NCBI RefSeq assembly: GCF_900496995.4
Contig: NC_044016.1
Location: 18,828,932-18,892,931 of the forward strand
DNA: 64,000 nucleotides
Reading direction: 5' to 3'
DNA from: Aquila chrysaetos chrysaetos
Taxonomy: Eukaryota > Chordata > Aves > Accipitriformes > Accipitridae
A program made the position numbers and the translations under genes. Positions 40,750 through 56,797 of the stretch are shown in pieces. The notes beneath the pieces were generated by a model, which was not told the origin of the DNA, ran no database searches, and saw only the letters and a list, made by a program, of their open reading frames with translations. The stretch's first letter is position 1; each line of letters opens with the position of its first letter.

Positions 40750-41183
40750 TGTTATAGATGCTCGTGACAAATTGGAGGAGCCAATTTGTATTAAATAAAA
40801 GATCGAATTTATTAGCAAGCGATAAAAGAGCAAAACAGCGCTGGGCGGCCGGGGAGACAGTGCTCCGCCACAAGCTCGCACCCAAACAGGGGAAGAGCCT
40901 CTTTATTTATACAGTCTTTTTAGTCCCTGATACGTGAAGGCTGGCTGGTATCTTCGGTATCTTGTGCCATCAGGTGTTAAGTGGTCGTAATTTGCCTTCT
41001 GGTGGTTGTTGGGATGAAGGCCGAAGTCTTCCTCAGCTGTTCTTTAGGTGACTCAAGTCCCATTCATGCTCTGTAAACGTTTCTCTACATATGCTAATCA
41101 TCGGTACTCATGGTCTTAGATAAGTGAAGAATATCCCTACCTCCACATGCGATTTCATGAACAAAGTTAACCCGTTCATTACA
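40750..41183 (-). repeat. 3' LTR of provirus A
   Basis: 434 bp, from TGTTATAG to CATTACA on the plus strand. On the sense strand a TATA-type box (TATAAATAAA) maps to 40902-40911 and an AATAAA signal to 40808-40813, giving U3, R and a short U5 in the expected order. By eye it differs from the 5' LTR at one site (T here and C there on the plus strand, near 40759), which is a G/A difference in a CpG on the sense strand. Confidence 0.95.
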
Positions 41184-43200
41184 ATCCCCCCTTTTCTATT
41201 TTATCCTGATTTTGTTCATTAAATCGATCTAATACTTCTTCTAAGCGCCCTTTAACAATAGCGATCAACTTATTAAAAATGCATGGCCCAAAAGTCAAAA
41301 ATAAGATCAACAAGATAAGGGGTCCTGTAATAGTTGACAATAGGGTGGTTAACCAGGGTGAATAATTAAACATAGACTCATACTAGCTCTGTTGTGCTTC
41401 CCTGTCTTTCTTCCGTTTTTCTAACCCCTCCCGTAGCTTGGCCATTGTATCTCTAACTACTCCAGTATGGTCAACATATACACAACACTCTTCCCGTAGG
41501 GCTGCACATAACCCCCCCTGCTGCATGAACATTAGGTCTAAGCCCCGTCTGTTTTGTAATACTACTTCTGATAAAGACCTAACAGACTGTTCTAGGGCTG
41601 TCATGGCTTTTTCTATCCTAGCCAAATCCTCGTCGACTGCTATTCTTAAGGATTGAAATTCTTGATTTTGTTGTATGAGGGAGGTTATTCCTGTACCAGC
41701 TCCAGCAGCTCCGACTGCTATGAGGGTTGCTACCGTGAGGGCTGTCAAGGGCTCACGTTTTTTGTATGTGATGGGCCTGAGTAGTTTGATAGTTATAAAT
41801 AAAATCTTCGGGATGGTAAATAAGCTTAGGTATTACAGTTACTTGTAAGATAGTAGTAGTCTGTACAATATTGTTATTATCATCTTCCTCTGTTACGACT
41901 GAATTTGGTCTTACACCAGAGGGTTTATTTGGCACCAGCTCTTTCCTTATCGTAATTATTCCCCCTTAATCTGCGCCTGGTTTTCAAAGTCTGACTCCCC
42001 ATGTTCTCTCGGTTAACCAAGCAGGATCTTTCGGGTTGGTTGCATTAATATAAACATATGGGCAATTTCCACTCCATAGTCCTGTTTGGCTTCCATCCCA
42101 ACCATGTGTACATCCATGAGGCCCCCACCTTACAGATAGGAATTTATCTGGACCTCCCCTAGGAATCCAATCAGAAGCTATAGTTTTGCAACCCCAATAA
42201 GCATAATAGTAAGAGTCGGGATGGTTGCAATACCCCTTTCCAGGGTTAGAACTGGGACAAAACTAAAAGCCTAAGTTATGTAGACATGGGTTCCTGGGTA
42301 TGATTTGACATAAGGATTGATTAAAGCTTGGGGCCCCGGCAGCAATTACTTGCTGTAGTATCTTTTGATCCTCCCACCTATAAAGCGTCTATTTGTAAGG
42401 TTGGTGGGGGTTCCCTTTGTCTTGGGTTGTCTCCATTAGCATTAGTAACAGTCCTATCATTCAAGTGCTTAATCTCAAGTTTGAGAAAAGTGGTGTCCCT
42501 TTACCCTTGCGACAGGTATTCCAAGGGTGCTGATAATCATTTTGATTTTTGTCTTCATCCCTGGTGAGAGATGGGAGACTTTGGGGAAGCTCTGAGGATG
42601 TTTTATTTGGGAGTAATAAGTCAAGAGGCTCCGTGAGCCTTCTCTGGAGGTAGTTCATCAACCTTAATCCCCACAGCAGTACGTCTCTGCCCTCTTCTCT
42701 GCCTACTCTGTTGCTTAGAGCAGCGAGGTATACTATCTTCTCAGCAGCAGTCGTATTCTTCAGGGGAACCTCCTTTATATTTACTTTGTTTTGACTTATA
42801 TGCGTCCCAGTTTGTATCCTTCACTTCCCAAGCTCCCCACCCCACTCTGACCACTGTTCGTCTGCGGGATACTTGCACTATTTCAGCCTTCGTTGGGCAT
42901 AACTCATTTACATAAAGACAACACCTCTCAGGGTTTATGCCTTTAGCAAAAATATCCCACCATTCTTTGGAGTCTTTTATAATTTTTCCAGTTGATATTC
43001 CCATACATAATGCTTGCTCAATTAATTCCTGTTCGTAATTATAACATTCGTGGCAAATGTCACTAGGGGAATACCCATAGGAGCAATGTGTCCACCACTT
43101 TTCTCTACAAAGTTTACGCCTGTAACATATAAAGATAACATATACAGTGAGGATTTTTACAAAAGACAGTCTCACTCCTCCACTTTTCTTCGGAGCTTGA
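41179..43200 (-). pseudogene. env of provirus A, broken
   Basis: The surface subunit starts in an open frame near 43175 with a hydrophobic signal-like N-terminus; no in-frame ATG was seen there, only GTG. Open pieces follow at 42461-42661 and about 41985-42250, the latter Cys-rich. A one-base shift in an A run near 41757-41762 separates surface from transmembrane subunit at a basic cleavage-like site. The transmembrane piece (41383-41748) has an Ala/Gly-rich fusion peptide, a heptad region and a CX6CC motif (residues 81-89 of that frame) after an immunosuppressive-type segment. A TAG at 41383-41385 cuts off the membrane anchor and tail (41179-41373). The last codons run through the polypurine tract, and the stop lies at bases 3-5 of the LTR. 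Confidence 0.88.
41184..41197 (-). other. Polypurine tract of provirus A
   Basis: The sense strand reads AGAAAAGGGGGGAT directly before the 3' LTR, the usual site of plus-strand priming. It is also part of the env reading frame. Confidence 0.88.
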
Positions 43201-43239
43201 TTTTCAAGCTGTCAGGGTCTTTGGTCACCTCTCAATGAG

Positions 43240-44974
43240 AACTCCGAATTGGTCCTTTGATCCTGCTTGCATGAGTCTATCCTCGTTCTGTAGTTCGGAC
43301 AGCAGTTTCTGTGGTAAGTAAAACAAGAAAGGGCCCCTCCCACCTAGGAGTGAGAGAGGATTTTTTCCAGGCTCTTATTAATACCATATCACCTGGCTTT
43401 ACTGAATTTCAGGGGTTGTTTTTCTTTGGTGTCCCTTAACATGTACCACAGTTATTCGCTTGGGCCCTCTTATTGCTTGTCTTGACTTCCTTTTCCCTGT
43501 TATTACTCGAGATGACCCATCAGCGAATAACTTTTCTCCCTCTCTCAATTTTACCTCTTCCAGATCTAGCCTAATTTTTGTTTGTTCTTCAATGGTCTGA
43601 AGGCAATTATGTGTTAATTCTTCTTCAGGACCCCCATACAAAAATTGCGCCGGATTTTTTAAGTTCGTTGTTCCGATCTCCAATTTAGGGGAATGGATTA
43701 GGATCCCCTTATATTTTAAAAGCCTAGCATCGGTGATCCATTTTTCAGCCTTTTGTTGGAGAACTCCTCGAATATTATGGGAGAACACCCTTAATTCACT
43801 TCTAAACGTTATCTTATTTGCTTCTTCCACTATCAGGGTTACAGCAACAACTGCTTGTAAACAGGTGGGCCACCCTCTACTGACGGGGTCTAATAATTTG
43901 GAAATATACCCTACAGGTTTCTTTTTCCCTGTCCACTCCTGGGTTAAAACTCCGTATGCTGTCCCCTCCTCAGTGGCCACAAATAAATAAAAGGGTCTCC
44001 TCACATCAGGCAGACTCAAGACAGGGGCGTTAACTAGATCAGCCTTGAGACTCTCTAATCTCTCTTCATCCTCCGGGGTCCATTTAAGCAACCCATCCAT
44101 AGTTAACTTTTGATACAAAAATCGTGCTTTCGCACTAAAGTTTTCAATCTACTGTCTACAATACCCAAATAGCCCCAACAATTGTCTAATCTGTTGTTTA
44201 CTCCTCGGGGCTTTCAGTGATAAAATTCCATTTACTCGTTCGGGGTCTAACTTCTTAGTCCCCTTGCTTATCCAGTGTCCTAAATATTTCACCTCCTTTT
44301 CCACAAACTGTAGTTTTGGCCGTGATACCTTGAGGCCTTGAAGGCCCAAGAAATTTAACAACCGTATGCTTTCTTTTCTGACTGTTTCTTGATTTTCTCC
44401 TGCTAACAATAAGTCATCCACATACTGTATTAGTATGACCCCATCCTGCAGTTGGTATTCCCGTAGAACCCGTTCTAGGGCTTGTCCAAATAAGTTTGGG
44501 GATTCTGTAAACTCCTGGGGGAGTACAGTCCACCTTAACTGCTGTCTCCTATGAGTGTCTGGGTCTTCCCACTCGAAGGCAAAATAATCTCTACATTCCT
44601 CCTTTAGAGGGCATGACTAGAATGCATCCTTAAGATCTATTACGCTATACCATTGGTTCTCGGGTCCCAATTGACTCAGCAGGGTGTGTGGGTTTGCCAC
44701 TACCGGGAACCAGTTGACAGTCCGTTTATTGATTTCCCTTAGGTCATGCACCAACCGATAGCTACCATCGGATTTTTTTTACTGGTAAAATCGGGGTATT
44801 AAAAGGGGACATGCAGGGTTCGAGTACCCCCTTTCCCAATAGTCTTTTAATCTCAGGTTTTAGTCCCCTTCTCCCTTCATTAGATAAGGGATATTGTTTA
44901 ACTCTCACTGGAATCTCTGGGTTCTTAATACCCACCTCAAATGGTTCAATCAAGCCATTCCATTGGGGTCTCAT
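43240..44974 (-). pseudogene. pol of provirus A, reverse transcriptase to integrase remnants
   Basis: Reverse transcriptase begins directly at the gag deletion joint. A run of eight A (sense) at 44773-44780 shifts frame, a TAG lies at 44617-44619 and another at 44149-44151. The YVDD active-site motif is encoded at 44413-44424. The open part 43399-44118 carries the connection region and the start of RNase H (DGSS) joined to its far end (VKGHQ), so the middle of RNase H is missing. After a frame change only the integrase C-terminal SH3-like segment remains (about 43255-43398), with a TAG at 43277-43279. The integrase zinc and catalytic domains are absent. Confidence 0.9.
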
Positions 44975-45906
44975 CTTTTTCCTGTGAGCCGGATCCTGAT
45001 TATTCCAGTTTGGCCGATTTAAGGGCCATTTTTGATCCGTTGCTGGGCCAGCCTGATGTTGCTGGTCCCACAGTCTCATCCCAGCCCCCCTAATCTTGTC
45101 CCTTTCTTCTACGGTAAATAATATGCCCAGGATAGACTGTAATTCATCCCACGTGTACAAATTCAGTCCCAAGAATTGATCCAACCTTTTGGCTACCCCC
45201 AGGGGATCATCTAACAGATTCCCCATTTCCTTCTTAAATTTTCTTACATCCCCTGTATTAAGGGGGACTGCCACATACCCCGTTCCCGGTCCTCCCTGTT
45301 CATCCTCACCAGGCACCAACATTTCCCGAAGAAGGAACAATCTTTCCTTTCTTTGTATTATTTTATTACGTGCAGACCTTCTGGGAGGGGGTGCCGGGGC
45401 TGAGGAATTAGGTTCCGAATCTGACCCTTCCTGGGCCTGGGCTATTTCCTGGCCTTGGAGTGGGTCCTGAGGAGGAGGGGCCTGAGGGGCATAGGGAGGG
45501 GGCCAAAGGGGGTCCTCATCATCTTTTCGAGGTTTATCTCTTTTCTCTTAAGGCAAAGAGGTATGACATTTCCCAGGATTGGGAAATCCATAAGGCAGCA
45601 TATTCACTTTCCTCTGGGCTGGCTGGTGGTCTCTTATTGTTTACCCATATATTTAATTGTTGACACACCCAATCCTCAGAGGACCCGAACACAGGCGAGA
45701 GTATATGAGGATTGCTGAGAGGTTTTCCACCCCAAATCTCAATACAATAACTAATCATCTTTTTCCTTAGACCTATCCTTTCTCCTTGGTGAACTGTCTC
45801 AATATCTTAACATCAGGCTTAGGGGACTGTCCGGGGGTATGTCTGGTAACTTATTTCCCTTCCCCGTCCCCATGGGTCCAGAGGGCTTGCTTTTCCTCTG
45901 TCCCAT
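44975..45906 (-). pseudogene. gag of provirus A, broken and 3' truncated
   Basis: The sense ATG at 45906 opens with Met-Gly-Gln, a myristoylation-type start for matrix. An in-frame TGA lies at 45799-45801, where gammaretroviral matrix commonly has Trp, followed by a one-base frameshift. The next open part (45534-45758) is matrix-like and ends at another frame change. A PPPY late-domain motif is encoded at 45491-45502 within a proline-rich segment. The open part from 45340 leftward is the N-terminal half of capsid. Around 44951-44983 this passes without a stop into reverse transcriptase, so the rest of capsid, nucleocapsid and protease has been deleted. Confidence 0.88.
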
Positions 45907-46081
45907 CTTCCGAGGTGCCCTTATCCACACACACACTCACTTCCCCTCGGTCGTGACTCGCTCCCTCGCGGGCTACGAGAACTGCACTACTGGAGGGTCC
46001 GCACTCGTGTGATCTCAGAGAGACCTCTCACACAATCGCACCTCGGGATAACCACCTCAACCAAACGGCTCACGCTTTATA

Positions 46082-46090
46082 TACTCACCC
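46082..46090 (-). promoter_or_regulatory. Candidate splice donor in the leader of provirus A
   Basis: The sense strand reads CGGGTGAGTAT, close to the donor consensus, between the primer site and the gag start. It would serve subgenomic env RNA. Position fits; use is inferred. Confidence 0.45.
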
Positions 46091-46275
46091 GCTGCCGGGG
46101 TCTTCGTTTGGTCTTCGTGCACAAAATTTAAGGGGTCCTGCAGGTTTTTTTGCTCAGTTATCGTAATTTAGAGGGGTTCGTGGGTCCAGGGTATGGCGGC
46201 GGCACCTCTTCAAGACGGGGCTATCCGGGGATAGGGCGCCTCCCCGCTTGCAAGGGTCCGCACAAAAGAACCTGT

Positions 46276-46293
46276 ATCCGAGTCACGGCACCA
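46276..46293 (-). other. Primer binding site, tRNA-His type (provirus A)
   Basis: On the sense strand the 18 bases read TGGTGCCGTGACTCGGAT, four bases inside the 5' LTR. This complements the 3' end of vertebrate tRNA-His including CCA. Assignment of the tRNA is from memory of tRNA 3' ends. Confidence 0.88.
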
Positions 46294-46297
46294 AGTT

Positions 46298-46731
46298 TGT
46301 TATAGACGCTCGTGACAAATTGGAGGAGCCAATTTGTATTAAATAAAAGATCGAATTTATTAGCAAGCGATAAAAGAGCAAAACAGCGCTGGGCGGCCGG
46401 GGAGACAGTGCTCCGCCACAAGCTCGCACCCAAACAGGGGAAGAGCCTCTTTATTTATACAGTCTTTTTAGTCCCTGATACGTGAAGGCTGGCTGGTATC
46501 TTCGGTATCTTGTGCCATCAGGTGTTAAGTGGTCGTAATTTGCCTTCTGGTGGTTGTTGGGATGAAGGCCGAAGTCTTCCTCAGCTGTTCTTTAGGTGAC
46601 TCAAGTCCCATTCATGCTCTGTAAACGTTTCTCTACATATGCTAATCATCGGTACTCATGGTCTTAGATAAGTGAAGAATATCCCTACCTCCACATGCGA
46701 TTTCATGAACAAAGTTAACCCGTTCATTACA
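46298..46731 (-). promoter_or_regulatory. 5' LTR of provirus A (promoter copy)
   Basis: 434 bp with the same ends as the left LTR. Its TATA-type box maps to about 46450-46459, so transcription would start near 46420-46430 and run leftward. It is the copy next to the primer binding site and so the promoter of the provirus. Confidence 0.93.
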
Positions 46732-47336: not shown

Positions 47337-48099
47337 TGTTACCGAAAAGCTCGGAATGAAGAACTTATCAACACCAATTTAGTGTAGATAAGCAGACACT
47401 TCTTTATTGACGGCCGGGTGCGCGGGCGAGTCCTCTCACGAACCACGCACACCTGTCTTCAAAACAATACACCTTATATTAAGACTTATAGATACATATT
47501 CATTAGATTTCCAAGAAAAGTTATACATATTCATTAGATTTTTGGGAAATCATTAGCATATGTGAATATCTTTTACGCAGGCGTAGTGAAGGTCTCTCCG
47601 AGGCGTGGTAAGTCTTGGAGGCGGGTAGCTTTTGACCAGGAGGTGTGTTTTGGTATTATAATGAAGCAAAGTTCGTCTAGAGTTTATGATTTCTTCATCG
47701 ATGTTATGGCAACAGGTGCAATCCATCCTTTTTGACAGTAGCTATGCGGTTATCTCTAACGGCTCTAGCCAGGGACCTTCCAGGAGCTTTGTACTGCACA
47801 TTCTATCCTTGGGGATCGGCCGCTGCGTTCCAAACAGGCCGTTGTCAGGTAACGTACTGACAACTCTTACACCACCCCGTTGTCAGGTATTTCTTTATCT
47901 TGTTATTTAAGTTCTAAATGTTCCTACTAGATGAATTTAGCCAATTTCTCCGGCCTTGATACGGGGCTATACAGGGGATTTTGCAGCAGACACTGGTTGG
48001 TGGTTAAATATATAAAATACAACATACATATGATTTTACTAAAATATTAAAACTAAATATGATTAATTCTAATAACAAATTAATGACAAATCAGTAACA
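47337..48099 (-). repeat. 3' LTR of provirus B
   Basis: 763 bp, from TGTTACCG to AGTAACA on the plus strand. On the sense strand an AATAAA maps to 47403-47408 and a TATA-type box (AATATAAGG) to about 47472-47480. It appears identical over its whole length to the 5' LTR. The 74-codon open frame shared by both LTRs on the plus strand is antisense to U3 and not taken as a gene. Confidence 0.95.
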
Positions 48100-48112
48100 T
48101 TTCCCCCCTTTG
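48100..48112 (-). other. Polypurine tract of provirus B
   Basis: The sense strand reads CAAAGGGGGGAAA directly before the 3' LTR, the expected plus-strand primer site. It lies 47 bases after the env stop. Confidence 0.88.
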
Positions 48113-48159
48113 AAAGTGTTGAAAATTATTTCAATACTTTCACATCATCTATCTAATAT

Positions 48160-49899
48160 TTATTTATTATTATTCTGAGAGTCAATATTTGTTTCGGCAT
48201 ATACTGGTGGTGGACTGCATTCTGGTGGAATAGTTGGAACTTCTCTCATGATCATGCGATTTACTGCAATTCTATTGGTAAATTGTTTCTTCAGACAAGC
48301 ATATAGTAGCATGATCATCAAAAAGACAATTAGTAACAGAAACAGAGTTTTGATTATTGACCGTAACCAAGAGCTCAGATTCCATCCTAATCCACTAAAA
48401 ATTTTTCCCAGCCAATCTTCTGATATATCTTCTCGAATAATTTCAGTTTCCTTTTCAACTTTGCTCAGTAGCTCCAAATCATGTTCTACGTCCTGTGTGA
48501 CATTAGGAATATGAATACAACAATGGTCCACTCTATCTTTGAGATACCCACACACTCCATGTTCCTTAAGCAAAAGTAGGTCCAAAGCCATTTTATTTTG
48601 GAGAGTCATCCTAGATGTAGCCTGCAACTGTACGTTCAATTCTTTGAACCCCTTTTTTGTGATGTTTGCTAATTTTTCTACCTGACCTGTTAACTGGTGG
48701 AGCCATTCTCTATTTCTATATGAAGCTATAGGGTTCAAAAGGGATTCAAGTGCCCAGCCAATTTTCACTCCTGTCGATGGTTCGTTCCATGTATCATCAT
48801 CTATTTCAGACCTCTTGGTTCGTTTTAGCTTCAAATTCTCCAAGGGTCTTTTGAATGGCGATTTCTTCCAAATCGGGCATAAAGTTGGCATGTCTAAAGT
48901 AACTTGTTTCACCGTGCCGTCTAATGATAAATGAGTTGTCCAGGTTCCATCACTTAATGCTCAAACTAAATGTCCTGGACTCTGAATGGTAGATTTTCTA
49001 CAACTGAAAAAGGTTCCCCTCCTGGGTATGAATGTTTCAGTTAATTTGAGATCATTTTTGAATCCTCTACACAAACAGCCATACTTCAAGGCCGCAGCTA
49101 GAGGAGGAATTCTTTCGATTGCTGGGTCTTTAGTACTACAATAATAAATTTTTTCACATCTCCACCAAGACACTAAATTTTCTTTTTCTCGTAATGTAGT
49201 TCCCCTGTCTTCTACTGATGGCCAGGCTGTATTAACTGACCCATCTCAAGTAAAGCACCAAGAAGTTTTGGCCATATATTGAAATTGAGACCATATGGCC
49301 ATGGACCATACTGAATCCCAGCTAACTGTTTTTTCTTCTGGTACGGTTTGATTGGCCTCTCCACATTTCCATTTCATAATGCTCCGGCTCTCATTAGTAT
49401 TGATTCGTACATCATATGAACACCAACCCATAGGGCTGCCCACTATAAACATGTCTCCTATAGAAGAGGCTGGTGTAAATTGATGATTTGATAATTTCAG
49501 ACAATCTTCTTCTCTACCCATCCATTTCCATTGTTTTCTAATGACCTTTACTTGTTCAGACCATTTAGTCACTGGCCTTTGTTTGCAATAGGTGGTTTTG
49601 TTTCTATGTTCTAAGGTAGTTAAATTCATAGTTAAAATTTCCCAAGGAACAGATTCCCCTACTGCTCTTGGTATCGGCAAACAAGCAGTAATTTGGGTAA
49701 CATTTTGTAGGCTGGCAAATCCCTTAATCAATCCCAACATCAAATTTTCTTCGGACATTTTTTCAGGAATGCCAATCAATTGTTCTGTTTCCACTTGTCT
49801 TTTGTTCCTGATCATTAAATTGGTCCGGGTTTCCACCATCATTATCTGCCGAACTAATATAAAAAGAACAAGCACAAACAGATATGAAAAATTAGACAT
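48160..49899 (-). pseudogene. env of provirus B, one frame with two UGA stops
   Basis: The ATG at 49899 overlaps the end of pol by 8 bases and begins a hydrophobic signal peptide. The single frame of 580 codons is interrupted only by TGA at 49246-49248 and TGA at 48961-48963, both in the surface subunit. A furin-type RTKR site lies near 48811-48822. The transmembrane subunit has no obvious N-terminal hydrophobic fusion peptide. It has a heptad region, then a Cys motif with nine residues between the first Cys and the CC pair, a membrane anchor (residues 188-206 of the 250-codon open part) and a tail with PPVY. Overall it is env-like with a clear class I layout, but the Cys spacing differs from the usual CX6CC. 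Confidence 0.9.
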
Positions 49900-52800
49900 G
49901 TTTCAGAGTCAGTTTTAAAGTCTTTGGATCTCGGTTAATAATCTTCCATGGAGTAGGTGCCTTCTTTACTCGAGTGTAGTGTATCCAAGCATCCGATTCT
50001 GCAATTTTAATAGCTGTGAAGGTGGTTAACAGTATTTGGAAAGGTCCTTTCCAACGTTCCTGCAGGGGTTCGGAAGTCCACGTTTTCACATAGACATAGT
50101 CTCCTGGTTGTAAGTCATGCACCGGAACTTCCAGGGATAGTGGTCTATTCCACACCACTGCTTTCCGAATTGCAGTCAAAGTTTTTCCTAAGGAAAGTAA
50201 ATAGTTATATACATCTTGTTTTCCTTTTACCTGCATGTTCGGGTTTGGTTCTGGAGATTCATAAGGTTTCCCATACAATAATTCATAAGGACTGACTGAG
50301 GTTTCACTCTTTGGTTGTACTCTGATTCGCAATAATGTCAATGGAAGTGCTTGAGGCCATTTTAAATTAGTCTCTTGACAAATTTTGCTTATTTGTCTTT
50401 TTAAGGTTTGATTCATTCTTTCTACTTTCCCACTGGATTGTGGCCTCCATGGGGTATGCAAATCCCATGTGATACCCAGAATTTTGCTAACATTTTGGAC
50501 CACTTCTGCAACAAAGTGTGGACCTCTGTCAGAAGAAATTCCAATAGGAACTCCAAACCTTGGAATTATTTCTCGTAGTAACCATTTTACTACTTCTTTT
50601 GCTTGTGTGGAACGACAGGGAAAAGCTTCTGGCCATCCTGTAAAAGTATCAACCCCCACCAGGATGTACTGATACCCATTCTGCCTAGGTAGTTCTGAAA
50701 AATCTACTTGCCAATAGTCTCCAGGCTCTGTACCAGATTTTATTCGACCCATTTGAACCTTTTTCCTGATTATTGGATTATTTTTCAAACATACTTCACA
50801 TTTTGCAGTTATTATTTTAGCTATTCCTAACATTCTAAGCGATACCACTTGTTTTTGTAGGGAAGTTACTAAGGCCTCTGCTCCCCAGTGACACTCCTGA
50901 TGCTTTGTTTGAATTATTTCTTTCATCAAAAAGGGTGGAACTACCACCTGTCCTTTAGGTGTTATCCACCATCCGGCTAGGTTCTTCTTAGCATTTAATA
51001 ATCGACCTAGCTTATCATCCTCCTCTGTGTATTTTGGTTCTTCCCTAGGGAGAGTTACTGTTTTGGAGGGAATTAATGCCATTTGCAATGCTCGTTCCTT
51101 TGCTACCTTTCTTGCTGTTCGGTCGGCTAAATTATTTCCAGCAATTTCCTTTGTGTTTCCAATTTGATGTGCTTTACAGTGCATGATTGCTACCTGATCT
51201 GGTTTCTGAACCGCTTGTAATAATTGTAAAATTTCATCTTGGTGTTTAATATTTGATCCCTGGGAGGACAATAATCCTCTTTCTTTCCACAATGCTGCAT
51301 GGACATGTACCACTCCAAAAGCATACTTTGAATCTGTCCAAATATTTACTTTCTTCTCCTCGCTTAGTTCTAAACCTCGAATCAAAGCAATAAGTTCCGT
51401 TTTCTGAGCTGAGGTGGTACTTGGTAATGCTTCTGCTTCTATAACTGTGGTGTCTGTTGTTACCGCATATCCAGTGTATCGAACTCCTTGTTCTACAAAG
51501 CTGTTACCATCTGTATACAGTTCCCAGTCCGGTCGCTCCAATGGTACATCCTTTAAATCTTCACGACTGGAATAAACATACTCAATAGCAGCCAGGCAAT
51601 CATGTTCCAATTGTCCTCCTTCCTGTATGGAACTTAAAAACACAGCTGGATTTGCCAGGTTAGTTGCTTTTAAAATTACATCATCTTGTTAAGTTAATAT
51701 TACTTGGTACTTCATCATTCTGCTCGGAGATAGCTAGTGTCCCCCCTTTTGTTCTAGAACAGTTTTCACCATGTGTGGGACATAGACTGTTATTGTTTTT
51801 CCCAAAGTCAATTTCCGAGGTTCTTGTATAATCATCACTGTTGCAGCCACTGTTCTAAGACAATTTGGCCACCCTTTACTCACTGTGTCCAGTTGTTTGG
51901 AGAAGTAGCCGACTGGTCGTTTCCAGCTCCCCATCTTCTGGGTTAACACACCAAGTGCCAGGTGTTGTCTTTCATGAACGAACAGCTGAAAACCTTTAGT
52001 TAAATCAGGGAGGCCTAAAGCAGGTGTTAACATTAAAGCGCGTTTTAACTCTGTAAAGGCCCTTTGCTGTTTTGGACCCCACACAAAGGAAGAGTTCTTT
52101 TGGGCCTCATATAACGGTTTAGCTATTAGACCGTAGTTCATGATCCAAAGACGACACCACCCTGCCATTCCCAAGAACGCTCTAAGTTCATGGATATTTT
52201 TTGGCTCAGGTATACTACAGATGGTTTCTTTGCGATCTTTTCCCAATTGTCTCTGCCCTTTTGAAATCTCAAAGCCCAGATATATCACAGTCTGACATGC
52301 TATTTGGGCTTTCTTCCTGGATACTTTGTACCCATTTAGTCCCAGAAAATTCAAGACATCAATGGTTACCTGTATGCAGGTAGATCTTTCTTCTGTAGCA
52401 ATCAATATGTCATCTACATATTGTAAAAGTAAATGTTCAGGCCTTGGTTTGTCCCGTTTCCAGACTTCAAGCTCTTTTGCCAGCTGGTTTCCAAAAATTG
52501 TCGGGCTATTTTTAAATCCTTGGGGTAGTCTTGTCCATGTCAGCTGCATCTTTCGCCCAGTTTGTGGATTTTCCCATTCAAAAGCAAACAACTTTCTGCT
52601 TTCCTTCTCCAAGGGTATGCAAAAGAAAGCGTCTTTTAAATCAAGCACTGTAAACCACTGATGAATCTCCTTCAACGCTGTTAACAATGTATAAGGATTT
52701 GTAACCACAGGATATGTGTCTTTGGCTATTTGATTCACTGCTCTCAAATCTTGCACTAACCTGTATTCTCCCGAGGGTTTTCTAACTGGTAAAATAGGAG

Positions 52801-53416
52801 TATTATATTCAGATTCACATTCCTCCAAAATTTTATACTTCAAAAATTTGTCAATCAATTTCTTTAACTCCTGCCTGACCTCTGGTTTAATTGGGTATTG
52901 TTTAATTTTTACTGTTCCTGCACCTTCTTTTAGATCTATTTTTACAGGTACTTCTAATTTTGATTTACCAGGAATCTCTGTTTCCCACACTGTAGGGATC
53001 ACTGCAAAATCCACCTCCGGTGGAATTTCTTGCCCCTCCACTTTTTCTTGTATCATTAGGATTTCTCCTGTTTTTGACTCAGGTATCTTCAAAAAGAGTT
53101 CTCCTTCCTCAAAAACAATTTGTGCATTTAATTTAGATGACAAATCCCTTCCTAACAAGGGTATCGGGCATTCTGGTACATACAAAAATTCATGTGTAAT
53201 TATTTTATTTCTAAATTTCAAATCCAGAGGTTGCAGGAATGGTCTGTTTTCTTCTTTCCCTGTTGCTCCTACTATGTTTGCCGTTTTTGTTCCAATTTTT
53301 CCTGTACAAGTATTTAATACTGAAAATGTCGCTCCTGTATTCACTAAGAATTTAACTTCTTTTTCCCCCAGCTTAATTATAACCAGAGGCTCAGCTGGGT
53401 TCCCCTCTGGTCCTCT
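49892..53416 (-). pseudogene. pro-pol of provirus B, protease active-site change and two stops
   Basis: The frame continues directly from the gag UGA, as in gammaretroviral stop-codon readthrough. Protease carries NTGA where the catalytic motif should be DTGA (codons near 53336-53344), which would abolish activity. Reverse transcriptase is complete, with LDLKDAF and YVDD (codon Y near 52420). A TAG at 51734-51736 and a TAA at 51689-51691 cut it before RNase H. The next open part (49892-51643) has RNase H acidic residues (TDGN, TEL, TDSK, LADR). It also has integrase with H248, H252, C282 and C285, a D314, D372, E408 triad with 35 residues between the last two, and a gamma-type C-terminus. All pieces are in one frame. 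Confidence 0.94.
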
Positions 53417-54931
53417 TCATTCATCCAAAACCATCATTCTGGCTACCTCTTTCTGAATATTTCCTCCTGAACACTGCACATTTTTAGGACAATCTCTTCT
53501 CCAATGTCCTTCCTCCCGACACAAAGCACACTGATTCACTCCTAAGGGGGTATTAAAATTCCGATTGCTAAAATTCATAAATCCTCTTCGTCCACTGCCA
53601 CCTCGTCCTCTTCCTCTACCTCGTCCTCTGTCTGCTGTTCCTGTGATTACGGCCAGTAATCTATTTTCTCTGATTTTCCTTTCCTCTTTTTCCCTGTTAT
53701 TATATACTTTCCATGTTGTCTCCAACATTTTATTCAAACTCCTTGAATCCTCTCCCTCCAGCTTCTGAAGTTTCTTTCTTATGTCCGGTGCCAAGTGCCC
53801 CATAAAAATCAAAGCCAACTGTATCTGAGCCGCCTCTGTTTCTACTCTTAAATCAGTATATTTTCTGGCAGCTTCCTTCAATCTTTCCAGAAACACTGAG
53901 AGAGATTCATTCTTATCTTGCCTCTCCTCATATAATTTAGACCAATTCAAAGATTTAGGCATAGCATGTTTAACTCCATATAAAATCCATTTCTGATACC
54001 GACTCAGCCTTTCTCTATGTTCTACTTTATTTGGATCCCACTGCGGATCCCCAGACGGAAAATTCTGCTCTAAGGTTCCACCTATTGTCCCACTCAATAC
54101 AGCCACTTCTGCCTGTGCTTTGCCAGTTTTTAGTACCATTTGCTTTTCTGTATCATCCAACAAATTATCCAAGATCACCTGTAAATCACTCCAGTCTGGA
54201 TTCTGCGTTCTAATTATAGTATCCACTACTCTGCCAACTCTCTCAAGATCTTCTCTATATACTCCAGCTGGCTGCTTCCAAGCCATCAAGTCCACAACCA
54301 AAAAGGGCACCTTTACATACGCTGGTCCATTGTTACCAACTCCCTGTCTCAAGGGAGCTATTGTTTGTGCCTGCTGTCGGGTCCTTCGAGAAATGGGGGT
54401 ATGAATCACAACTTCAGACGGTCCTTCCCCTGCATTCTCTATTCCACTGCTTTCTGGTTCTTCCATCTGTTCCCTATGCTCTAACTCCCAATTCCTTCCT
54501 CTCCTGGGAGGGGATATATCCAACTCTGGCCCTTCATCCTCTTTGGGGGCAATATCACATGCCAGACAACATTTCTTCTCTTTCTTATTATCAAAAGTTA
54601 TAGCCATTACCAAATTGTCCCTACTAACTAGCTTGCACTCATTCTGCCAATCTCTTCTCTGCCTTAAGTAAAAAAATAAATCCACATGAGGTACTTCATT
54701 TCCCTTCTCTTCTACAAAACAACATTAACTGCAGAATGGTGTCATAATTCAGTGTCCCATTCACGGGCCACCTTTCCTGATCCTCTAATGTATACAGAGG
54801 CCACCAATGATTACAATAGTCAATCATTTGATTTTTTTACGTAAATCATCATACAGTTCACCCAAATGTGCCAACAAACATCCCAACGGAGATGTTTTCG
54901 GTATCTTTCCATCAGTGGACAAATTTCCCAT
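53417..54931 (-). pseudogene. gag of provirus B, two frameshifts in matrix
   Basis: The likely start is the ATG at 54929-54931, opening Met-Gly-Asn as for N-myristoylation. The frame stops within about 35 codons, near 54824-54840, next to a run of seven A. Matrix-like coding continues in another frame, and a second one-base shift near 54695 brings it into the long frame ending at 53417. That frame encodes the rest of matrix, capsid with the major-homology type region, an Arg-Gly-rich stretch and one CCHC zinc knuckle (C386 to C399 of the 422-codon open part). No PPxY, PT/SAP or YPxL late motif is seen. The stop is a UGA in frame with pol. Confidence 0.92.
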
Positions 54932-54964
54932 ACTCTTACTCTTAAATAATTTGGCAAATGCCAT

Positions 54965-55135
54965 TATGTTTATACCCAATACCAAATATCTATTAAATAT
55001 ATAACAAATATCAAAAATCAATAATCAATTATCAGATGTTGAATACCAAATATCAAGTGCCAAGTATCAAATACAAAGTTTCAAATACCAAATACATATA
55101 TCAAACACCAAATATTAAATAAATACAAATAACAA
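54965..55135 (-). repeat. Degenerate short-repeat block in the leader of provirus B
   Basis: The plus strand repeats variants of ataccaaatatcaa about ten times with irregular spacing, almost free of G. In RNA sense it is a U-rich, unstructured segment just upstream of the gag start. It probably arose by slippage. Confidence 0.6.
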
Positions 55136-55372
55136 TTGTTGCCAGGTAATGGAGTCCACCTACTTGCCCAGGGCACAGACAAAGCCGACTTCCCTAAGCA
55201 AGAGTCATAACCAATATCCCCTGGCAAAATTATTAACCAGCAAATATATTCACACTTTATAACTTCCAACCTCAATAAGAGACACTACAATCGTTGCCAA
55301 GACTCACTTCATGCTCAATTGCACATCCCACACTTACAACACTCACGATACTTCCAAGTACACAATATATCT

Positions 55373-55433
55373 CACTTTTTTTTTTCTCCCTTTTTTTCTT
55401 TATTTGTTTTTGGTTTTTTTTTTTTTTTCCTTT
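55373..55433 (-). repeat. A-rich tract in the leader of provirus B
   Basis: The plus strand is almost pure T with a few C and G, which is a roughly 60-nt A-rich stretch in the RNA directly 3' of the hairpin array. An unpaired A-rich region beside structured repeats may matter for RNA folding or packaging; that is inference. Confidence 0.7.
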
Positions 55434-55437
55434 AGAA

Positions 55438-55862
55438 TTTGGGACTCAAACCCAAAATTTCCAAAATGCTTTTGAAGCTGGGACTCTAACCCAGAATCCT
55501 CAAAAGTTGTGGGACTCTAACCCACTCCCAAATTGTCCAACCCAGCAATAGCTTTCGCTTATGTCTTACGGGCAGACGCCTAGGCTTCTACTTCCTTCAG
55601 GATCCTTTTGTCCAACCTTGCGCAGCTTTCGCCGCGTCTGACAGGCAGACGATACCGGTGGGACTCTAACCCACTCGGGGGGACTCTAACCCCAAACAAT
55701 ACCGGTGGGAATCTAACCCACTCGGGGGGACTCTAACCCCAAACAATACCGGTGGGACTCTAACCCACTCGGGGGGACTCTAACCCCAAACAATACCGGT
55801 GGGACTCTAACCCACTCGGGGGGACTCTAACCCCAAACAATACCGGTGGGACTCTAACCCAC
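55438..55862 (-). repeat. Array of twelve T-arm-like hairpins, including 4.5 copies of a 47-bp tandem repeat
   Basis: Four full 47-bp units (55654-55841) and a partial fifth each carry the 13-mer GGGACTCTAACCC, twice per full unit. Three spaced relatives lie at 55438-55456, 55478-55494 and 55509-55525. On the sense strand each folds into a 4-6 bp stem with a 7-nt loop, TTAGAGT (once TTAGATT, once TTTGAGT). Stems vary in step on both sides (GTGGG/CCCAC, CTGGG/CCCAG, TTTGGG/CCCAAA, GGGG/CCCC). The loop matches the tRNA T-loop at positions 54, 55, 57, 58 and 60, and the stem-closing G-C matches 53-61. Sitting downstream of the candidate splice donor, it occupies the usual place of a packaging signal. 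Confidence 0.85.
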
Positions 55863-55886
55863 TATCCTTAATATTTAAAAGAAGTG

Positions 55887-55895
55887 TCTTACCAA
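55887..55895 (-). promoter_or_regulatory. Candidate major splice donor of provirus B
   Basis: The sense strand reads TTTTGGTAAGAC, with GT at 55892-55891. It lies between the primer site and the hairpin array, so the array would be kept only in unspliced genomic RNA. Use is inferred from consensus and position. Confidence 0.5.
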
Positions 55896-56012
55896 AATCC
55901 AGGGGACGTCGCAAAGAGCCTTATGGATCGGGGATCGATGGGTATCCCCGAGAAATCCTCGGTGCCGGCAGGAACCAATCGGTCCCCGACTCCTCCGGTC
56001 TCTCTCAGCGAG

Positions 56013-56030
56013 GTCCCATCTGGGTCGCCA
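56013..56030 (-). other. Primer binding site, tRNA-Arg(CCG) type (provirus B)
   Basis: The sense strand reads TGGCGACCCAGATGGGAC four bases inside the 5' LTR. From memory of vertebrate tRNAs this complements the 3' end of a tRNA-Arg with CCG anticodon, whose acceptor ends GGGTCGCCA. The more common Arg primer sites differ, so an exact search of avian tRNAs should confirm it. Confidence 0.8.
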
Positions 56031-56034
56031 AAAC

Positions 56035-56797
56035 TGTTACCGAAAAGCTCGGAATGAAGAACTTATCAACACCAATTTAGTGTAGATAAGCAGACACTTC
56101 TTTATTGACGGCCGGGTGCGCGGGCGAGTCCTCTCACGAACCACGCACACCTGTCTTCAAAACAATACACCTTATATTAAGACTTATAGATACATATTCA
56201 TTAGATTTCCAAGAAAAGTTATACATATTCATTAGATTTTTGGGAAATCATTAGCATATGTGAATATCTTTTACGCAGGCGTAGTGAAGGTCTCTCCGAG
56301 GCGTGGTAAGTCTTGGAGGCGGGTAGCTTTTGACCAGGAGGTGTGTTTTGGTATTATAATGAAGCAAAGTTCGTCTAGAGTTTATGATTTCTTCATCGAT
56401 GTTATGGCAACAGGTGCAATCCATCCTTTTTGACAGTAGCTATGCGGTTATCTCTAACGGCTCTAGCCAGGGACCTTCCAGGAGCTTTGTACTGCACATT
56501 CTATCCTTGGGGATCGGCCGCTGCGTTCCAAACAGGCCGTTGTCAGGTAACGTACTGACAACTCTTACACCACCCCGTTGTCAGGTATTTCTTTATCTTG
56601 TTATTTAAGTTCTAAATGTTCCTACTAGATGAATTTAGCCAATTTCTCCGGCCTTGATACGGGGCTATACAGGGGATTTTGCAGCAGACACTGGTTGGTG
56701 GTTAAATATATAAAATACAACATACATATGATTTTACTAAAATATTAAAACTAAATATGATTAATTCTAATAACAAATTAATGACAAATCAGTAACA
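56035..56797 (-). promoter_or_regulatory. 5' LTR of provirus B (promoter copy)
   Basis: 763 bp, the same as the left LTR. The AATAAA maps to 56101-56106 and the TATA-type box to about 56171-56178, so transcripts would start near 56145 and run leftward. Confidence 0.95.

What the first reader, a model, noticed from the sequence alone, without database searches (positions are those of the whole stretch)
55438..55862. Array of twelve tRNA T-arm-like hairpins in a retroviral leader
Seen: twelve hairpins with 4-6 bp stems and a 7-nt loop, nine of them in a 47-bp tandem array. Stems differ between copies but stay paired (GTGGG/CCCAC, CTGGG/CCCAG, TTTGGG/CCCAAA, GGGG/CCCC), as expected if RNA structure was selected. 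The sense loop TTAGAGT (variants TTAGATT, TTTGAGT) matches the tRNA T-loop pattern at all conserved sites except position 56, and the stem-closing pair is G-C as in tRNA. Known: tRNA-like elements near the primer site of some retroviruses help tRNA or synthetase recruitment. Inference: the array mimics T-arms to handle primer tRNA, to be bound by a tRNA-modifying or binding protein, or as a repeated packaging signal. I know of no described retroviral leader with such an array.
Basis: partly seen in the sequence, partly recalled or inferred. Interest (0 to 1): 0.9.

Follow-up and report, generated by a model that had tools for sequence, protein, structure and literature searches.

The report
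T-loop hairpin array in bird retrovirus
The leader RNA of a retrovirus family lodged in a bird's genome carries 2 to 16 copies of a small hairpin that looks like one arm of a transfer RNA; its loop hardly changes between related copies while its stem changes in matched pairs, so it is probably a working signal of the unspliced viral RNA, with a partner still unknown.

Summary
The minus-strand leader of provirus B holds twelve hairpins with a tRNA T-loop-like loop (UUAGAGU); no other hairpin in the 64 kb fits the same strict pattern, and all twelve appear in the predicted fold. The array is not private to this locus: 39 of 39 fetched family leaders carry 9-16 motif copies, and 14 diverged leaders (L060, L080-L092) carry 2-9. 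Among 11 of those 14, loop cells differ in 6 of 405, against 174 of 1633 other cells downstream of the splice donor, while the two outer stem pairs change on both sides. The array starts about 30 nt after a donor-like site, so it should be in unspliced RNA only, where gammaretroviral packaging signals lie. The core differs from the probable primer tRNA's T-arm only at position 56. But ten more distant leaders with the same type of primer site lack the motif within the ~600 nt fetched, so primer use does not require it. Best reading: a clade-specific, multivalent recognition (packaging or assembly) signal of genomic RNA. Structure is well supported; function is inferred.

The parts
56035..56797 (-). 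5' LTR of provirus B (763 nt)
   Evidence: identical to the 3' LTR; target duplicate GTTA on both sides
47337..48099 (-). 3' LTR of provirus B
   Evidence: identical to the 5' LTR
56013..56030 (-). primer binding site TGGCGACCCAGATGGGAC
   Evidence: exact in 29 of 39 family leaders
55887..55898 (-). splice-donor-like site TTTTG|GTAAGA (cut 55893/55892)
   Evidence: TTTTGGTAAGA present in 38 of 39 family leaders; use not shown
55652..55863 (-). 47-nt tandem array, 4.5 units, nine hairpins
   Evidence: motif copies per locus incl. the gag-side ones: 10 in 21, 12 in 9, 9 in 6, 14 in 2, 16 in 1, of 39 family leaders
55846..55862 (-). hairpin GTGGG-TTAGAGT-CCCAC
55819..55835 (-). hairpin (T)GGGG-TTAGAGT-CCCC(C)
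55799..55815 (-). hairpin GTGGG-TTAGAGT-CCCAC
55772..55788 (-). hairpin (T)GGGG-TTAGAGT-CCCC(C)
55752..55768 (-). hairpin GTGGG-TTAGAGT-CCCAC
55725..55741 (-). hairpin (T)GGGG-TTAGAGT-CCCC(C)
55705..55721 (-). hairpin GTGGG-TTAGATT-CCCAC
55678..55694 (-). hairpin (T)GGGG-TTAGAGT-CCCC(C)
55658..55674 (-). hairpin GTGGG-TTAGAGT-CCCAC
55509..55525 (-). gag-side hairpin GTGGG-TTAGAGT-CCCAC
55478..55494 (-). gag-side hairpin CTGGG-TTAGAGT-CCCAG on a further 9-pair stem with a 3-nt 5' bulge
   Evidence: lower stem p=0.0003 against shuffled flanks
55438..55456 (-). gag-side hairpin TTTGGG-TTTGAGT-CCCAAA on a further 8-pair stem with a 2-nt 5' bulge; loop TTCGAGT in 5 of 39 other family members
   Evidence: lower stem p=0.0015
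55610..55650 (-). GAAA-tetraloop hairpin unit, copy 1
   Evidence: core string in 36 of 39 family leaders
55535..55577 (-). GAAA-tetraloop hairpin unit, copy 2
   Evidence: core string in 37 of 39 family leaders
53417..54724 (-). gag reading frame (Gag_p30, zinc knuckle) that places the element upstream of gag
   Evidence: Pfam; nearest proteins from birds of prey

Best explanation
The array is a lineage-specific cis-acting RNA element of a gammaretrovirus-like endogenous family in a bird. A variable number of short hairpins, each closed by a G-C pair and capped by a T-loop (UUAGAGU), begins about 30 nt downstream of a 5' splice-donor-like site, so it would be carried by unspliced genomic RNA and removed from spliced env RNA. 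I think it most likely works as a multivalent recognition platform that marks genomic RNA for packaging or assembly: many like T-loop knobs raise the avidity for a T-loop-binding partner, first of all Gag (matrix or nucleocapsid). Shown here: the hairpins, their spread through the family and a diverged clade, the near-fixed loop, stem changes on both sides, and the position after a donor-like site. Inferred: that the donor is used, that Gag is the partner, that the effect is packaging.
For: 12 hairpins against a chance mean of 0.017; all 12 in the predicted fold; motif in 39 of 39 fetched family leaders and in 14 diverged leaders. Loop cells differ in 6 of 405, other cells downstream of the donor in 174 of 1633 (11 of the 14 leaders aligned; Fisher p 3e-11). 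Over 34 distinct hairpins pair 5 forms in 23 (shuffled mean 15.0, reached 12 of 5000) and pair 4 in 27 (22.8, reached 119 of 5000); G-U cells 16, A-C cells 5, as expected if the sense RNA folds. Donor-like site directly upstream in B (38 of 39 family leaders) and GGTGAG at the same place in L060. That gammaretroviral packaging signals lie just after the donor is recalled. HIV-1 matrix binds the tRNA elbow (PMC8473020, passages).
Against: No binding, probing or packaging data. Ten more distant leaders with the same type of primer site have no such motif in the ~600 nt fetched, and L077/L078 have none, so packaging in this larger group does not need it. The copy number varies widely. Loop columns were picked because the majority reads TTAGAGT, and neighbouring repeats can homogenise, so the conservation test is partly circular. 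Pairs 1-3 never exceed shuffles because they hardly vary; two of five measures do not exceed shuffles (449 and 199 of 500). Inside the young family the loop is not clearly better kept than background (0.43 against 0.51 changes per column), and a subfamily (L056, L058) has lost the T-loop in one hairpin while keeping its stem.
Confidence: 0.45

Rival explanations
1. The array mimics the T-arm of the virus's own primer tRNA and helps to gather, place or free the primer: by competing for a tRNA-binding protein, as the HIV-1 tRNA-like element does for LysRS, or by docking the tRNA elbow with paired T-loops.
For: The primer site implies a tRNA 3' end GTCCCATCTGGGTCGCCA; with the published primer TGGCGACCCAGATGGGACTC (PMC7393169, passages) the tRNA has G57 A58 G59 U60 C61 C62 C63 A64, matched by 8 of the 12 hairpins at all eight positions except one G59. 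Five of 39 family members have the full loop TTCGAGT in the last hairpin. Interdigitated T-loops dock tRNA elbows in 23S rRNA, RNase P and T-box leaders (PMC4810234, passages).
Against: Ten distant leaders with the same type of primer site, and L077/L078, lack the array. The diverged clade mostly has C64, not A64. Outside the hairpins nothing in LTR-to-gag reads CCCAC, so no separate primer activation signal of that kind is seen. C56 is missing in 411 of 416 copies. The tRNA gene was not found or read in this genome (search did not complete).
Confidence: 0.25
2. The array controls splicing or export of the unspliced RNA: eleven UUAG loops and many GGG runs just after the donor bind hnRNP A1 or hnRNP H and hold back splicing.
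For: Position about 30 nt after the donor-like site; the loop holds UUAG in 11 of 12. The binding preferences of hnRNP A1 and H are recalled.
Against: One loop is UUUGAG; stems that change on both sides are not needed for GGG or UAG binding. No RNA data were available.
Confidence: 0.12
3. The array is a neutral tandem repeat grown by template slippage during reverse transcription from one ancestral hairpin.
For: Copy number varies from 2 to 16; array units are near-identical; L093, a distant leader, has one hairpin GGGG-TTAAAAGT-CCCC at the comparable place.
Against: Loop cells change far less than neighbours and outer pairs change together; gag-side hairpins outside the tandem block keep the form with other stems.
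Confidence: 0.1
4. It is a DNA element: a palindromic transcription-factor site or a degenerate pol III B box repeated downstream of the promoter.
For: The hairpin is a dyad in DNA; the T-arm coincides with the B box (recalled).
Against: G-U cells exceed A-C mismatches 16 to 5; two long lower stems of unrelated sequence lie under gag-side hairpins; C56, a key B-box base by recall, is absent in 411 of 416 copies. Against this argument: the antisense strand also folds better than shuffles.
Confidence: 0.06

Closest known systems
[quoted passage not shown]
   Same: tRNA mimicry in a retroviral leader that may serve a tRNA-binding partner
   Different: The TLE mimics the anticodon arm, is a single stem and binds LysRS (PMC11181671, passages); here T-arm-like hairpins are repeated 2-16 times, further downstream, after the donor-like site
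Primer activation signal (PAS) of HIV-1
   Same: a viral sequence related to the primer's T-arm
   Different: The PAS lies in U5 and is complementary to T-arm positions 48-55 (PMC3675109, passages); here the hairpins have the same sense as the T-arm
Gammaretroviral packaging signal (psi) with its stem-loops
   Same: stem-loops just downstream of the splice donor, in unspliced RNA (psi anatomy recalled)
   Different: many like hairpins with T-loops instead of a few different stem-loops; no binding known
Interdigitated T-loops of the L1 stalk, RNase P and T-box leaders
   Same: T-loop motifs next to each other
   Different: In those RNAs two interlocked T-loops dock the tRNA elbow (PMC4810234, passages); interlocking and tRNA contact are untested here

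Membership tests
T-loop motif | 7-nt loop UUNRANN closed by a standard pair | tested here: met
   12 of 12 in the window; in the family 413 of 416 loops are TTAGAGT, TTTGAGT, TTGGAGT or TTCGAGT and 2 more TTAGATT (a count that asks for TT and R57); lost in one hairpin of L056 and L058
T-loop motif | U54-A58 reverse-Hoogsteen pair and U-turn | not testable with these tools
   needs probing or a solved structure
tRNA T-arm | 5-pair stem, G53-C61, U54 U55 C56 R57 A58 | tested here: not met
   C56 is A in 11 and T in 1 of 12; C in 5 of 416 family copies; the GGGG type has 4 pairs
HIV-type tRNA-like element | lies in the PBS segment and mimics the anticodon arm | tested here: not met
   first hairpin is about 150 nt after the PBS and past the donor-like site; the loop is T-loop-like
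HIV-type tRNA-like element | binds the cognate tRNA synthetase | not testable with these tools
   no binding data
Primer activation signal | complementary to the 5' strand of the primer's T-arm, outside stable hairpins | tested here: not met
   CCCAC occurs in LTR-to-gag only inside the hairpins, 6 times
Gammaretroviral packaging signal | structured RNA downstream of the donor, before gag | tested here: met
   donor-like site in 38 of 39 leaders, predicted structure; donor use not shown
Gammaretroviral packaging signal | binds nucleocapsid and is sufficient for packaging | not testable with these tools
   needs an experiment; see referred step
Interdigitated T-loop tRNA receptor | two interlocked T-loops that stack on the tRNA elbow | not testable with these tools
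   no three-dimensional data
Tandem repeat of variable number | unit number differs between copies | tested here: met
   9-16 motif copies in 39 family leaders

The most novel reading that the evidence does not exclude
A retrovirus has evolved an RNA device of neighbouring T-loops, copied many times over in its genomic RNA, that docks tRNA elbows (its probable tRNA-Arg primer first of all) or takes the tRNA's place on Gag, so that genome choice or primer loading is governed by imitation of a tRNA T-arm which, lacking C56, the cell's T-arm enzymes may not modify.
Probability: 0.2. Interest if true: 0.88.

Novelty: new variant of a known kind. Interest (0 to 1): 0.64.

Why it matters
If the T-loops are what a partner recognises, this group of endogenous retroviruses is a natural series (none, 2-9, 9-16 copies) for asking how T-loop avidity changes the choice of genomic RNA, and whether retroviruses use tRNA-elbow mimicry for more than primer loading. 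I know of no other leader with an array of T-arm-like hairpins, and the searches (open-access papers only) showed none.

Tried and rejected
Capture of tRNA sequence by read-through of the primer: rejected, because that would leave the complement of the T-arm in the sense strand, and the hairpins have the sense of the tRNA. Block inserted by retroposition (an A-rich run follows the last hairpin): no direct repeat of 8 nt or more in the flanks tested. Kissing of the loop with another site: CTCTAA does not occur in the sense strand of provirus B. Rfam: no match at gathering score in the window; ARAGORN: no tRNA gene. IMG/VR: the pattern search gave 12 loci, 10 with predicted tRNA genes and 2 (L002, L011) without; none has the A56 motif; two protein searches confirmed no relative. 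GTDB contigs: 0 matches of the A56 pattern, no confirmed gag relative. Selection inside the young family (31 of 39 leaders): uninformative. Covariation on the window alone: suggestive only. In one search one of 42 hairpin rows was out of register by one base; one search repeats the count on 34 rows, and I use for pairs. Strand argument from fold energy: weak, since the antisense strand also folds better than shuffles.

Never answered: the tRNA gene in this genome, the gag search (93, 95, 97, 100) and the search with the gag-side leader (62, 64, 65, 68, 71, 73, 75, 77, 79, 85).

Full report
What is there. The window lies in a genome of 1.23 Gb in 144 contigs. Provirus B runs on the minus strand: LTRs 56035-56797 and 47337-48099, identical, with target duplicate GTTA; primer site 56030-56013; a splice-donor-like TTTTG|GTAAGA at 55893/55892; then the hairpins, 55862-55438; gag starts near 54.93 kb (read). 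Pfam finds Gag_p30, a zinc knuckle, protease, RT, RNase H, integrase with an MLV-type C-terminus and TLV_coat: gammaretrovirus-like.

The hairpins. Scans find twelve hairpins of T-loop form in the leader and none of the strict form elsewhere in 64 kb. All twelve are in the minimum-energy fold of the 612-nt leader. In the twelve T54, T55, G57, A58, T60 and G53-C61 are fixed; position 56 is A in 11 and T in 1; position 59 is G in 11 and T in 1; pair 50-64 is T-A in 8 and G-C in 4; pair 49-65 is G-C in 6, C-G in 1, T-A in 1 and a T-C mismatch in 4. Two gag-side hairpins stand on further stems of 9 and 8 pairs with a bulge on the 5' side only (p=0.0003 and 0.0015 against shuffled flanks); the other ten have at most 3 further pairs, not significant (p 0.09 to 0.67). 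Fold energy against shuffles: array z -5.3 sense and -4.2 antisense, gag-side trio -3.8 and -3.1, GAAA units -1.7 and +0.3, PBS-to-donor -3.1 and -4.5.

Family. One whole-genome search with the array gave 42 matches (101 candidates, 40 scored, so a lower bound). I fetched 39 leader pieces: the 42 matches less the window itself and two second fragments of loci already taken. All 39 carry the motif: 10 copies in 21 loci, 12 in 9, 9 in 6, 14 in 2, 16 in 1. This count asks for at least 10 of 13 core bases, not for pairing; 398 of 416 motif copies have at least 4 contiguous Watson-Crick pairs, and by that measure loci hold 7 to 16. The last motif of each locus has loop TTTGAGT in 33, TTCGAGT (the full tRNA form) in 5 and TTAGAGT in 1. 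The primer site is exact in 29 of 39 and the donor-like string present in 38 of 39. The copies are young: 96-100% identical over the gag-side leader.

Diverged relatives. In twenty 10-kb stretches of contig C30 one locus, L060, had a leader 77% like B over 104 nt, with primer site TGGCAACCCAGATGGGAC, donor-like GGTGAG and five hairpins, all with loop TTAGAGT and with other stems; none of 5000 Markov versions of that leader reaches five. A search with L060 gave 46 matches (121 candidates, 40 scored). I fetched thirteen leader pieces of nearer matches (L080-L092, 78-91% to L060) and ten of farther ones (L093-L102), not all matches. The 14 near loci including L060 hold 2-9 TTAGAGT motifs each; the ten far loci hold none within about 600 nt, though L093 has one GGGG-TTAAAAGT-CCCC and L099 one loose chance-like hit. 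L077 and L078 (gag 40% identical, primer site TGGCACCCCAGATGGGAC) hold none by the looser scan.

Selection. With 11 of the 14 near loci aligned (L084, L090 and L091 left out), loop cells differ from the majority in 6 of 405, stem cells in 37 of 572, other cells downstream of the donor in 174 of 1633. The loop columns were chosen where the majority reads TTAGAGT, so the test is partly circular, and the repeated part aligns imperfectly. Over 34 distinct hairpins (31 kinds from relatives, taken with loop exactly TTAGAGT, and 4 from B, one shared) pair 5 is formed in 23 (shuffled mean 15.0; 12 of 5000 reach it) and pair 4 in 27 (22.8; 119 of 5000); pairs 1-3 hardly vary and say nothing. G-U cells outnumber A-C cells 16 to 5 (binomial p 0.027, cells not independent), which favours folding of the sense RNA over a DNA dyad. 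On ten hairpins (five from B, five from L060) no shuffle of 500 reached three of five measures (share of paired cells, cells changed on both sides, covariation score), while the number of changed pairs and of pair types was no better than shuffles (449 and 199 of 500). These controls do not remove relatedness. Inside the young B family (31 of 39 leaders) stems show 0.15, loops 0.43 and background 0.51 changes per column, which is not informative for the loop; L056 and L058 have loop AAGGAGT on an unchanged stem in one hairpin.

Primer. The complement of the primer site, GTCCCATCTGGGTCGCCA, is the 3' end of a tRNA. PMC7393169 (passages) prints a primer pair for a tRNA gene, GACCCAGTGGCCTAATGGATA and TGGCGACCCAGATGGGACTC; the paper calls it pre-tRNA-Leu, while by recall the letters are those of tRNA-Arg(CCG). 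Either way that tRNA has G57 A58 G59 U60 C61 C62 C63 A64, and the GTGGG, CTGGG and TTGGG hairpins match all eight, save G59 in one copy. So the likeness is to the primer's own T-arm. One near relative, L087, has another primer site (TGGCGACCACGAAGGGAC, by recall of another tRNA-Arg) and keeps the hairpins. But relatives mostly have C64, and more distant leaders with the same type of primer site have no array, so a duty in primer handling is possible and not needed. The tRNA gene of this genome could not be searched.

How it most likely works. The position after a donor-like site, the near-fixed loop and the paired but changeable outer stem fit a recognition element of unspliced RNA in which the loop is read and the stem presents it. 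Gag is the first candidate partner: HIV-1 matrix binds the tRNA elbow (PMC8473020, passages). Direct docking of tRNA by neighbouring T-loops is the bolder reading: interdigitated T-loops do so in 23S rRNA, RNase P and T-box leaders (PMC4810234, passages). Neither was tested here.

Known or new. Searches of open-access papers (listings, and the passages cited) showed no retroviral leader with a T-arm array. Subscription papers are mostly not in that library. I file it as a new variant of a known kind: a structured retroviral leader element with tRNA mimicry.

Noticed in passing
40750-46731: A second provirus (A) on the minus strand; LTR match of 434 nt at 99.8%, primer site TGGTGCCGTGACTCGGAT (by recall tRNA-His, HERV-H-like), only fragments of gag and pol. 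Its leader has no hairpin of the strict T-loop form.
   Followed up: partly
47337-56797: Provirus B has identical LTRs, yet its matrix region changes frame and env is cut by two in-frame TGA stops; pol also falls into separate frames. Young insertion of an already broken copy, or assembly errors.
   Followed up: no
55535-55650: Two copies of a unit GTCTGCC..GCGAAAGC..GGTTGGAC that fold into GAAA-tetraloop hairpins between the two sets of T-loop hairpins; a related unit is in L060 and L093.
   Followed up: partly
55375-55430: Long A-rich tract between the last hairpin and gag, of different length in other copies such as L054-L058.
   Followed up: no
L087, first 40 nt: Primer site TGGCGACCACGAAGGGAC instead of the usual one, with the hairpins kept: a change of primer tRNA within the clade.
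   Followed up: no
L093, about 276-295: One hairpin GGGG-TTAAAAGT-CCCC in a distant leader without the array; possible ancestor or decayed remnant.
   Followed up: no
L060:2747-2830: Runs of about 19 and 11 G form the 5' arms of two hairpins.
   Followed up: no
L056, L058: A subfamily with TTGGAGT loops in the GGGG hairpins and loop AAGGAGT on an unchanged GTGGG/CCCAC stem in the hairpin equal to 55509-55525.
   Followed up: partly
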